Of a DNA stretch of 17,555 bases, positions 11,930 through 16,143 are shown in pieces. The translations under genes were made by a program, and so were the position numbers. The notes below the pieces were generated by a model. That model made no database searches. It saw only the letters and a list, made by a program, of their open reading frames with translations, and had not been told where the DNA came from. Each line of letters opens with the position of its first letter. Position 1 is the first letter of the stretch. The stretch is taken from positions 1 to 17,555 of the forward strand of contig MSJI02000410.1 of assembly GCA_001931905.2 (NCBI GenBank), read 5' to 3'. This stretch comes from Cladosporium sp. IMV 00045. Taxonomy: Eukaryota; Ascomycota; Dothideomycetes; Cladosporiales; Cladosporiaceae.

Positions 11930-14900
11930 TCAACGCACCGCGAGCTTTCCGCCTCCACGTAACACCCCAGGCTCTTGGACGTTCTGAAGATGGTTGGCTA
12001 TGATTTGAACCCGGAGTCGCTCGTCAATCTTGAGGAAATACCACGGCGTGATATAAACCACTTTGCCCTCTTTCACTTCCTCGCTCTGGTCGACGCACAT
12101 GGTGCGTAGCACCCTCTCCATACCCGCTCGAATGTTGAGACGCGGCATAAGATCTGTCTGGAAGTTCTCAGGAAGATGTTCTGGATGCGAAGAAACGTAG
12201 GTATCCACGATCCCCAAGACTATCGCTGCGATTGCAACAGCGATTGGCGTGGCGAAGGAAGTTCCGCTCCGGTGGATCGTCTTCTTGTCCGAGTCTTCCT
12301 GGCATGACTCCACGGCTTCTCCAAAGGTGTGCAGCAGAGCACTAGTACCAGAGCTGAAATGGGCTTCTCGTCCGAAATAGTTGGTAGCTCCTACGGCGAT
12401 CACGCCAGAGTCTAGAGAGCATGCCGGCCAGGTTTTGCCGGTGTTGCCGCCAGCGTTTCCAGCGGCGGCGAAGAAAAGTACCCCTCGCTCGCGTGCTGCT
12501 TTGAGAGCTTGGTCGATTGGCTCTAGAGTGGGGTGATATTCTGGGAAGCCAAAAGACATGTTCACCGCGTGAACAGGGCCATCTGGCATGTTTTTCGACG
12601 AGAAATAATCGATGGCCTGGGAAGTTCAGTCAGAGGGGGACTGCCCAAGGTTAAGTGGACGGTGTCATTACCTCTGCAATCTTGGGAATGTCCACTGTTC
12701 CTAAATCGTTCGCGGCGGTGATCTTCGCAACATAGATCTGAACGTGTGGTGCGATCCTCAGAATCAAATATGCCACATGCGTGCCATGTCCGTTACTGTC
12801 TGCGCACTTTTGATTGTCTGGCCAGCAGCGAATTCTCCCAGCTCGGTTGGCAATCCAGTCGTTCTCCAAATCAATGCCAGTGTCGAGGATCGCTATCTTG
12901 ATTCTGTTCAATCGCTCGGTAGGTCTTTTGGGAAGTCTGTCTTGAAGCTCCTCGAATTTCTTGAACCAGTTTGTCGACCCCAGGTGTCTTTACGGCAAGT
13001 CAGTATGTTATTTATCAACAAGTCACTTCGATGATCGCGAAGGTTCACTCACTCTCCAGGGTCATCGATCGTTTGGAAGGCCTCAATTCCCTGCCACTCA
13101 TGCGGTACCAACGATTTGGAGGGAGCTTTTGTCTCAGCACTCGTCAAAGCCCTTTTCAGGCTATGAGTGACCATTTTAAGCTTCAGAGTCCACGTCAGTT
13201 ATATCAAAGAAAGATACATAGACGGACGCTTACCTTGAAGACATTGGGCTTCGGGGTAGTGGGTCTTGGAGGTTTAGGCCCTTTGATCGCGAGGCCATGT
13301 TTTGGGGGAGGGGCAGGTTTAGACTTGAAGAATGCTCGTGTCCCATTGTGCCCATTCACTTTGATAGAAGCTCCCTGAGCAATGGATTTCGGCGACTCGA
13401 CTGCTATGTTGACTGCCGGTAGATGAAGGTTCGTGAGCACCTCATCTGGATCTTGACCCTCCCATGCCGCGACATGATCTGCCGATACTAGATCAATGAT
13501 TCTCAGAACAGCATGGTGAAACAGATCTTCATCGGGTGCAATGTTTGGGCTGAACAGGCCTTCGATACACTCTCGGACGCAAGTCTTGTAGCGCTCGTAA
13601 GTATCCCAAGACACTGCATTGAACTCTTGGCAGGCAATGTTCCTCAGCTCTGCAAGATCCGTACAACGGGTGGTGGGAGATATCTGCCTCTGCGCAAAGA
13701 TCTCCATCAACAAGATTCCGTGTAAAAGTAATCTGGCCTCTGTTGAAGTGCTGGCATCTTTTCGGTCGCCGCCGGGTGCGACTAGAATTGGTCTGAGCGA
13801 TAGGCGAGCAGCTCGCTGAAAGAAGTAGATATGGTGAGCTGTCCACCCAGAAGAGAACCAGGATTCATCGCAAAAGTCGAGGAGTGAGTATGATAGAACC
13901 AAAGCCAAGGGAAGTCGGTACTTCAGCGGAAAAGGCGCTTGGTGAACGCTCAGAAGACCGTGGTCAAGACTAACCAAGCTTCCATCTTCCCACTCGCTCA
14001 TCGGAGGTTCTGTACGACTCAACTCACGGATAGAGCTTTGTTCGAGAACAAGACCCAATCTATAAGGAGAGTTGACTTGTACTGCTTTGCACAAGCTTTC
14101 AATGCTTCTTCCTCCCTCTGTCGATTGCTCTGGTAGAAAAATTCCAGGGCGATGCCGAAAAGTATGAGCAGGCAAAAGGTGCTGTTTCATCGTGTCATTC
14201 GCTTCTTTGATTGTGACATGTGCTTCCTGCCACGACCGTCCCGGTTCTTTTCGATTCAAGAGCAACGTGAAAGCGCATGCCTCCACATCTTCCCTCAAAT
14301 TACTCTGTGTGTACAACAGAAGTCCTGCCCTGTGTGGCGCGGAACAGCAACATGCCCAGTGCGAAGTTATTCTGGAAAGCAGGTAGCGTAGGTGTAGATC
14401 CAAGCGCTTTCTGGGTGTCGTCCTGAGCACTTCGCCGTCTTCAGGTGCTTCATCTTCGTCATCGAGAACTATCAATACCAGCTCGTCAAGTGCTTCAAGA
14501 ATGAGTGTTTGCTTTTCTTTCGTAAGAGATGAGCTTGTTTGATCGGAAAGTACGACTGAACCGCTGCCCCAATTCGCTAAAGTATAAAGATTCGAAAATA
14601 AAAGTAACTCGTATTCCTATACGAAAGGTCAACTTGATGGTTTCTTCAAGTGTGAGGACAGCACACACTTCAGCGGATTTGAATGCTTGATTGAGGCCAT
14701 CGTTCAGATTCGACAAAAGACTGTCGATCAGTTGTCTGTGTTCGCCTCGCAGTCTTTGCCAGCATGGTGTTCCTTGGGATAGTAGACTGAGAGGCGTGAG
14801 TAATTTGGCCCAGAACCTCCAAGGGTGATTTCTCCTTCTGACGCTAGCCTGAGTGGCGAGTCTGAGCAGTGGAGCTGCACTGTTATTTGTCGGGCCTATT

Positions 14901-15151
14901 GGATCACATAGCATCTGCAGAAGTGCCAGGCGCCTTCGAAACTCGATGTCCAGGAGCTCTCCTGAGGTAGACATAGTCGCGAAACGATCAGGCCAGCCCT
15001 CATGTCTCCCGGCAAAGCCTACATTACGAAAGTCTGGAGGAATGCGAAACACGAGTGGTAGAGTATGGACTGCAGAGAAGAAGTCTGGTGTCATCCTAGG
15101 GTTGGCGGCGAGGCTGGCGAGGCTGACGGGCTGAGCCAGCCGCGTCTGCAT
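11930..15151 (-). CDS. DUF7580-like/subtilisin (peptidase S8) fusion, HET-Q2-like candidate
   Basis: I model five exons, complement(11930..12616, 12672..12987, 13053..13180, 13234..14616, 14669..15151), giving 998 aa. The four introns are 52, 53, 65 and 55 nt; donors are GTGTGT, GTAAGC, GTGAGT and GTAATG, each with a TTGAC or CTGAC branch site and an AG acceptor, and all keep the frame. Residues ~20-560 are helical and resemble the fungal DUF7580 region (SHWACCC near 246-252, RLPLALVLSYSLLDFCDESW at 395-414). A Pro/Lys-rich linker (~570-620) leads to the S8 domain. The triad is D700 (ILDTGID), H732 (GHGTHVA) and S890 (SGTSFATP), with oxyanion N824 (AAAGN). There is no signal peptide, so the protease should be intracellular. 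No NACHT, NB-ARC or repeat domain is seen. Head-to-head placement with a gasdermin-like gene suggests that it cleaves that protein to trigger cell death. The start is uncertain: ATG 15151 has C at -3, while M20 (15094) has A at -3. Protease identity is firm; the role is inferred. Confidence 0.88.
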
Positions 15152-15315
15152 TAGACTATCACACCATGCATGCCGGGTGCATGGATTAAATCAGCCACGC
15201 GAGCTGGTCGTTGCCTCCGAAGCTGTATAAGTCAGAAGGCTTCTCTTTTCGTACTGCAGCGAATCTTTCTCTAACTATCTAGAAAAGCCGCTCATCCCTG
15301 GCTTCGCTCTCATCG
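15152..15315. promoter_or_regulatory. Shared divergent promoter of the protease and gasdermin-like genes
   Basis: Only 164 bp separate the two start codons. TATAAG at 15226-15231 lies about 90 nt before the gasdermin-like ATG and is followed by a CT-rich leader (CTTCTCTTTTC, CTTTCTCTAAC). On the - strand a weaker ATTTAAT lies at 15185-15191, about 35-40 nt before ATG 15151. That spacing would leave a very short leader and slightly favours the second Met at 15094 as the protease start. Joint regulation of the pair is inferred from this arrangement. Confidence 0.55.
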
Positions 15316-16143
15316 ATGGCATCTCGAACTAAGACCTATTTTCTGTCACCATCTTGGGACCTCCAACCCACAGACGTGGTGTTGGGCAGTATCTTTTCAA
15401 ATGTCAAAAAGCCACAGAAAGTCCTGTCCGCTTCATCGTTACCCGAAAAGATTGACACGCAAATCTCGAATCCCGTAGCATCGAAGAACGTTCATGGCGC
15501 GGTGAGAAAAGGCGGCTCTTGGGCTCTGGGTATCTTCGCTACCTTCATCCACTTCATTACCTTCGGAGCATCAGCAAATGTCTCGTCCGCAACGTCGCGG
15601 AACATGGAGTTCTCGTGCGAAACGATCGACACACGCTGGTTTACGCCTTCTTCTACATATCTTGTAGCAGCAGTCGAAGATCCTGGAGTCAAGAAATACC
15701 TAAGCTTCGGTGGCAAAAGAGCCAGCGTCTTCCTCGTGACGGGAGTGAAGGTTGCTCGCGGTGTCATCGTGAAAACATCTGAGCAGTCGCAAACATTCGT
15801 ACACGCTCAAGTTGGCGTGGACATACCGGCCATCGAGTCAACAGTTGGGCCGAAAGCATCATGGAAGCCGGAAAAATCTGCCCAAGTTGAACAAGATATC
15901 CCCGGACCTGTCGTGTTTGCATTTCAAGTTGAAAAAATCACTGTGAACAAGCAAGGCGATGCGAGAAGCACAGAGGTTACCAAAGGAGCTGTCTTGGGCG
16001 TTGACCAAGCCGGTGAGGAGTATGAAGTTGCGAGAGAGGCAGGAGATCTAGACGAAGACGAGGCTGAAGACATTGGCGAATGTGTCGTGACGGGGCATGA
16101 TGATGACGGTACGACATGCCGTATTTGGATGCCGATGGACTGA
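15316..16143 (+). CDS. Fungal gasdermin-like pore-forming cell-death protein (HET-Q1/RCD-1 type), candidate
   Basis: One exon encodes 275 aa, close to the length of known fungal gasdermins. The N-terminal part has LSPSWDLQPTDVVLGSIF at 10-27. A glycine-rich amphipathic/hydrophobic stretch (about 66-90, GSWALGIFATFIHFITFGA) precedes an alternating beta-like region, fitting the membrane-inserting hairpins of gasdermins. Next come DTRWF (105-109), a VEDPGVKKYL stretch (120-129) and FLVTGVKVARG (139-149). The end (about 215-275) contains an acidic cluster (DLDEDEAEDIGE, 244-255) and a short terminal segment. In Podospora HET-Q1 the protease removes a C-terminal fragment of about 5 kDa, so this tail is the likely inhibitory part. 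There is no signal peptide, so the protein should be cytosolic until it inserts into membranes. The call rests on sequence pattern, size and the neighbouring S8 protease; I could not run a profile search. An unrelated family would be the main alternative. Confidence 0.72.
   Translation: MASRTKTYFLSPSWDLQPTDVVLGSIFSNVKKPQKVLSASSLPEKIDTQISNPVASKNVHGAVRKGGSWALGIFATFIHFITFGASANVSSATSRNMEFSCETIDTRWFTPSSTYLVAAVEDPGVKKYLSFGGKRASVFLVTGVKVARGVIVKTSEQSQTFVHAQVGVDIPAIESTVGPKASWKPEKSAQVEQDIPGPVVFAFQVEKITVNKQGDARSTEVTKGAVLGVDQAGEEYEVAREAGDLDEDEAEDIGECVVTGHDDDGTTCRIWMPMD

What the first reader, a model, noticed from the sequence alone, without database searches (positions are those of the whole stretch)
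11930..16143. Head-to-head gasdermin-like gene and subtilisin protease: a probable fungal regulated cell-death module
A 275-aa gasdermin-like protein and a 998-aa S8 protease with a full catalytic triad are divergently transcribed from a 164-bp gap. In Podospora anserina the subtilisin-like HET-Q2 cleaves the gasdermin HET-Q1 and triggers allorecognition cell death, and fungal gasdermin genes are mostly clustered with protease genes. The pair here fits that logic.
Basis: partly seen in the sequence, partly recalled or inferred. Interest (0 to 1): 0.92.

Follow-up and report, generated by a model that had tools for sequence, protein, structure and literature searches.

The report
Fungal gasdermin paired with subtilisin protease
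This stretch of a mould's genome carries a gene for a pore-forming cell-death protein of the gasdermin kind beside a gene for a protein-cutting enzyme that probably switches it on, a known type of fungal gene pair, here with a kinase-like control part on the cutter.

The parts
15316..16143 (+). Gasdermin gene, 275 aa, no intron
   Evidence: ORF; profile hits to HET-Q1 and RCD-1; fold match to RCD-1
15979..16140 (+). Acidic C-terminal tail and linker of the gasdermin, residues 222-275; candidate inhibitory tail and cleavage region (inferred)
   Evidence: pLDDT under 50; LDEDE..DDFG-like motif in relatives
14975..15315 (.). Divergent intergenic region, 341 bp if Met60 is the start
11930..14974 (-). 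S8 protease gene from the probable start Met60 (941 aa); from the first ATG at 15151 it would be 1000 aa. Exons 14974-14623, 14576-13234, 13180-13053, 12987-12672, 12616-11930
   Evidence: splice search, homologues, indel pattern against C814
13561..14394 (-). DUF7580 domain (PF24476), kinase-like fold without HRD/DFG motifs
   Evidence: Pfam E 2.1e-19, coordinates, model and fold search, motif scan
12218..12899 (-). Subtilase (S8) domain, residues about 697-905, in exons 4 and 5
   Evidence: PF00082, subtilisins at best E 4.5e-19, coordinates
12882..12884 (-). Catalytic Asp702
12786..12788 (-). Catalytic His734
12455..12457 (-). Oxyanion Asn826
12257..12259 (-). Catalytic Ser892

Best explanation
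A two-gene regulated cell-death module of the fungal gasdermin kind. The gasdermin is made full-length and held inactive by its short acidic C-terminal tail (inferred). The neighbouring S8 protease is kept off and switched on through its N-terminal half, which contains a pseudokinase-like DUF7580 domain acting as sensor or regulator (inferred). Once active it cuts the gasdermin in the low-confidence, probably flexible stretch after about residue 222 (inferred by analogy with HET-Q1, which a review says is probably cut at F238), freeing the pore-forming domain, which oligomerises in the plasma membrane and kills the cell (inferred from the family). Shown here: gasdermin homology and fold, catalytic residues in place, kinase-like fold, linkage across this assembly, constraint on both genes.
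For: Gasdermin: profile hits to HET-Q1 and RCD-1, fold match. Protease: S8 with Asp, His, Asn, Ser invariant in 12 sequences. Linkage: 7 of 7 gasdermin places lie 377-3617 bp from an S8 match, with two architectures: DUF7580-S8 at C407, C814, C34 and TPR-S8 at C936 and one C110 place by Pfam and at their duplicates C386 and the other C110 place by alignment. Constraint: dN/dS 0.25 (gasdermin, 274 codons) and 0.17 (protease, 940 codons) against C814; 5 of 6 indels in the compared stretch lie outside coding exons. From Met60 the most hydrophobic 19-residue stretch is the catalytic-serine helix, not the N-terminus, as for a cytosolic protein; no signal-peptide predictor was run. Reviews: about 63% of fungal gasdermin genes cluster with S8 genes; HET-Q2 cleaves HET-Q1 (passages of PMC10197012 and PMC12881547).
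Against: Cleavage, pore formation and death were not tested. The window protein has no PF04598 hit; 4 of 16 family members hit it at E up to 0.1, best 0.0016. The gasdermin model is modest (mean pLDDT 60; residues 157-188 and 222-275 under 50). The C814 copy keeps an open gasdermin frame although its protease frame is broken before the catalytic serine. dS between the copies is uneven (0.13 gasdermin, 0.16 DUF7580 half, 0.31 and 0.65 in the S8 part), so the pair may not share one simple history. RCD-1 shows that a fungal gasdermin can work without a protease.
Confidence: 0.82

Rival explanations
1. The gasdermin works like RCD-1: it is activated without cleavage, by mixing of different alleles after cell fusion, and the protease next door does something else.
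For: RCD-1 is the best structural match; a review describes RCD-1 as cleavage-independent; C814 keeps an open gasdermin frame beside a broken protease.
Against: All seven gasdermin places have an S8 neighbour; two versions of this gasdermin, 92% identical, already coexist in the assembly, which would be lethal if they were antagonistic, provided that the assembly is one organism.
Confidence: 0.08
2. The pair is a true allorecognition (het) locus in which strains carry incompatible gasdermin or protease versions.
For: HET-Q1 is the best sequence match in the PDB profile search; frame-broken protease or gasdermin copies in three duplicated loci resemble the pseudogenisation route to allorecognition described in a review passage.
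Against: One assembly only, no population data; both partners are open and linked in this window, so the protease cannot be constantly active if both are expressed.
Confidence: 0.2
3. The neighbourhood is coincidental and the protease has unrelated substrates.
For: 9 of 16 S8 genes counted in the assembly have no gasdermin near.
Against: 7 of 7 gasdermin places are paired, chance about 1e-7 to 2e-9 (and arithmetic on it).
Confidence: 0.04

Closest known systems
het-Q1 / het-Q2 of Podospora anserina
   Same: Gasdermin with a short C-terminal tail controlled by an S8 serine protease; profile hit to the HET-Q1 pore 9uv9, E 1.3e-7.
   Different: Here both partners are open and divergent in one genome, and the protease has a DUF7580 kinase-like half (domain make-up of HET-Q2 not examined here); allorecognition not shown.
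Protease-fGSDM two-gene clusters (Q2L proteases; Clave et al. 2022, paper not held, known here through review passages)
   Same: S8 gene next to gasdermin gene; multidomain protease as putative sensor; a review counts 18 architectures in about a third of some 1500 proteins, another mentions predicted kinase-like fusions.
   Different: No feature clearly outside the group; DUF7580 is named in no held paper, which says nothing of papers not held.
RCD-1 of Neurospora crassa
   Same: Best structural match, about 10-20% identity in the structural alignments.
   Different: RCD-1 is activated by two allelic variants without cleavage.
Bacterial gasdermins with linked proteases
   Same: Short inhibitory tail and linked protease according to the reviews; weak profile hits, E about 0.008.
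   Different: Distant sequence; anti-phage setting.

Membership tests
Fungal gasdermin (HET-Q1/RCD-1 family) | Significant sequence similarity to a characterised fungal gasdermin | tested here: met
   Profile A1: HET-Q1 E 1.3e-7, RCD-1-1 E 7.1e-7, RCD-1-2 E 3.6e-6; single sequence against RCD-1-2 E 0.0019
Fungal gasdermin (HET-Q1/RCD-1 family) | Gasdermin pore-forming fold | tested here: met
Fungal gasdermin (HET-Q1/RCD-1 family) | Match to Pfam PF04598 over its cut-off | tested here: inconclusive
   No hit for the window protein nor in the assembly (whose 14 controls were silent too); 4 of 16 members hit at E up to 0.1, best 0.0016
Fungal gasdermin (HET-Q1/RCD-1 family) | Pore formation and cell death | not testable with these tools
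   needs expression
Protease-fGSDM cluster | S8 or CHAT protease gene within 10 kb of the gasdermin gene | tested here: met
   341 bp between probable start codons; 7 of 7 gasdermin places of the assembly within 3.7 kb of an S8 match
Protease-fGSDM cluster | Catalytic residues of the protease in place | tested here: met
   Asp702, His734, Asn826, Ser892
Protease-fGSDM cluster | The protease cleaves and activates the linked gasdermin | not testable with these tools
   needs co-expression
Allorecognition (het) locus | Alternative alleles in different strains that kill on fusion | not testable with these tools
   one assembly only
Protein-kinase-like fold (DUF7580) | Kinase fold | tested here: met
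Active protein kinase | HRD, DFG and VAxK catalytic motifs | tested here: not met
   None in the 447-aa exon-2 protein by pattern scan; hence pseudokinase-like

The most novel reading that the evidence does not exclude
A pseudokinase gates a gasdermin-activating protease: DUF7580 is a kinase-fold switch, as the MLKL pseudokinase is in necroptosis, that senses a ligand, a partner kinase or an intruder and releases the fused subtilisin to cut the gasdermin, so that one fungal molecule joins a necroptosis-type switch to a pyroptosis-type executioner.
Probability: 0.35. Interest if true: 0.65.

Novelty: new member of a known kind. Interest (0 to 1): 0.4.

Why it matters
It adds a compact gasdermin-protease pair from a Cladosporium-like fungus and shows that in this assembly every detected gasdermin has an S8 neighbour. 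Reading DUF7580 as kinase-like gives the DUF7580-S8 proteins of many fungi a testable role as sensors in gasdermin death; what activates these sensors is called a major open question in a 2025 review (PMC12881547, passage). Duplicated loci with one broken partner offer natural tests of how far the two genes depend on each other.

Tried and rejected
The PF04598 search of the assembly found nothing, but its 14 controls were silent too, so it was not read as absence; protein queries found seven gasdermin places, the same seven with two different queries.

Scans of genome contigs and viral contigs with alignment A1 confirmed no relative, so neighbours of the pair in other species could not be read.

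A HeLo (MLKL-like) domain beside DUF7580 was looked for in 10 unspliced ORFs of 8 DUF7580 loci; Pfam showed none. The idea that this genome shares DUF7580 between HeLo and S8 proteins is therefore not supported, though introns could hide a domain.

The alternative acceptor 14556 of intron 1 tied in the splice score and was rejected because homologues keep the Phe-Pro junction.

The next gene downstream (from about 16742) was considered as a third member. In C814 it is a 901-aa ORF with cysteine-histidine motifs that look like zinc fingers, followed by an ORF that looks like inositol-phosphate synthase (both names by recall, no family search), and it was not taken as part.

Hortaea werneckii was considered as the source; the MFS neighbour is nearer to Cladosporium halotolerans (89%) than to Hortaea (72%).

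PF26164 is a precomputed domain of two homologues (P0005, P0015); it is not in the local library and was not identified.

Literature searches for DUF7580 (no paper), for gasdermin with kinase-like and subtilase terms (listing only) and for gasdermin with Cladosporium (listing only) gave nothing on this pair.

Full report
Observation. The window holds a 275-aa ORF at 15316-16143 on +. On - a protease gene runs down to 11930. A splice search gave 30 open combinations; two tie at the top and differ in the acceptor of intron 1 (14577 or 14556); I took 14577 because homologues keep the Phe-Pro junction. The introns are 14622-14577, 13233-13181, 13052-12988 and 12671-12617; the protein has 1000 aa from the first ATG. 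A copy of the locus on contig C814 (90.2% identical over 7212 columns) supports the model: of six indels in the compared stretch, two lie upstream of Met60, three in introns and one, of 2 nt, in exon 5 of the C814 copy. A 19-bp deletion upstream of Met60 in C814 and the N-termini of homologues make Met60 (14974) the likely start: 941 aa, gap 341 bp.

Genome context. The assembly has 49.9 Mb in 954 contigs. Two gasdermin queries give the same seven places: C407 (this window), C814 (92% identical), C936, C386, two on C110, and C34; such counts are lower bounds. PF00082 gives 19 matches, which I count as 16 genes. Each gasdermin place lies 377-3617 bp from an S8 match: divergent at C407, C814, C936 and C386, same strand at both C110 places, convergent at C34. 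DUF7580-S8 proteins occur at C407, C814 and C34; TPR-S8 at C936 and the first C110 place by Pfam and at C386 and the second C110 place as their 89-90% identical duplicates. Nine S8 genes have no gasdermin nearby, and 11 of 14 DUF7580 matches are not in an S8 gene. Chance of pairing four loci within 10 kb is about 1.7e-9; if the two TPR-S8 loci share one origin, three loci give about 3e-7.

Selection and decay. Between C407 and C814 dN/dS is 0.25 for the gasdermin (274 codons) and 0.17 for the protease (940 codons). dS is uneven: 0.13 in the gasdermin, 0.16 in codons 60-640, 0.31 in codons 660-850 and 0.65 after codon 860, so the 3' part of the protease may have a different history. The C814 protease has a frame break at codon 855, before the serine; the C386 TPR-S8 has a 1-nt frame break between aspartate and histidine, and the second C110 gasdermin has an open frame of 221 aa against 322 with a 5-nt insertion. 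In each of three duplicated loci one gene of one copy is broken. Assembly error is not excluded; no reads were available.

Organism. The MFS neighbour is 98% and 93% identical to unnamed sequences and 89% to Cladosporium halotolerans. I take the source as a Cladosporium relative with duplicated content, a hybrid or a mixed assembly; no tool names it.

Literature. The primary paper (Clave et al. 2022, PNAS) is not held. Passages of PMC10197012 and PMC12881547 state that about 80% of fungal gasdermin genes cluster with protease genes, about 63% with S8 genes; that HET-Q1 loses about 5 kDa, likely cut at F238 by HET-Q2; and that RCD-1 is cleavage-independent. A passage of PMC9815663 reports NLR genes with CHAT or S8 domains beside gasdermin genes.

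Conclusion. The pair belongs with the fungal gasdermin-protease modules. Shown: homology, fold, catalytic residues, linkage, constraint. Inferred: autoinhibition by the tail, control through DUF7580, cleavage, pore, death. Allorecognition is one possible use and is not demonstrated.

Noticed in passing
L035:5226-6236 (+), L036:5132-6145 (+), L037:6378-7232 (+), L038:6499-7308 (+): An ORF with one strongly hydrophobic segment (Kyte-Doolittle mean 2.86-3.13 over 19 residues) lies beside the TPR-S8 gene at each of the four TPR-S8/gasdermin places: a candidate third, membrane-borne partner. None such was seen in the window's ORF list.
   Followed up: partly
L034 (C814), L036 (C386), L038 (C110, second copy): In each of three duplicated gasdermin loci one gene of one copy is frame-broken: two proteases and one gasdermin.
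   Followed up: partly
G000:C110:143000-150500 and 179000-186500: Two 7.5-kb blocks, 89% identical, lie 36 kb apart on one contig, about the same divergence as between duplicate contigs; tandem duplication or a chimaeric join.
   Followed up: no
11930-12987 against L034: dS between the duplicate copies rises from about 0.16 in the DUF7580 half to 0.65 after codon 860 of the protease, which hints at recombination or gene conversion.
   Followed up: no
16742-17555: Start of a gene that runs off the contig; in C814 a 901-aa ORF with zinc-finger-like motifs (named by eye).
   Followed up: partly
1138-4479: La/LARP1-type protein gene, PF05383 and PF21071.
   Followed up: no
9725-11638: MFS transporter, 89% identical to Cladosporium halotolerans, the best clue to the organism.
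   Followed up: yes
G000:C75/C549 and C821/C866: S8 genes on pairs of contigs with identical scores suggest nearly identical duplicated regions besides the 90% copies.
   Followed up: no
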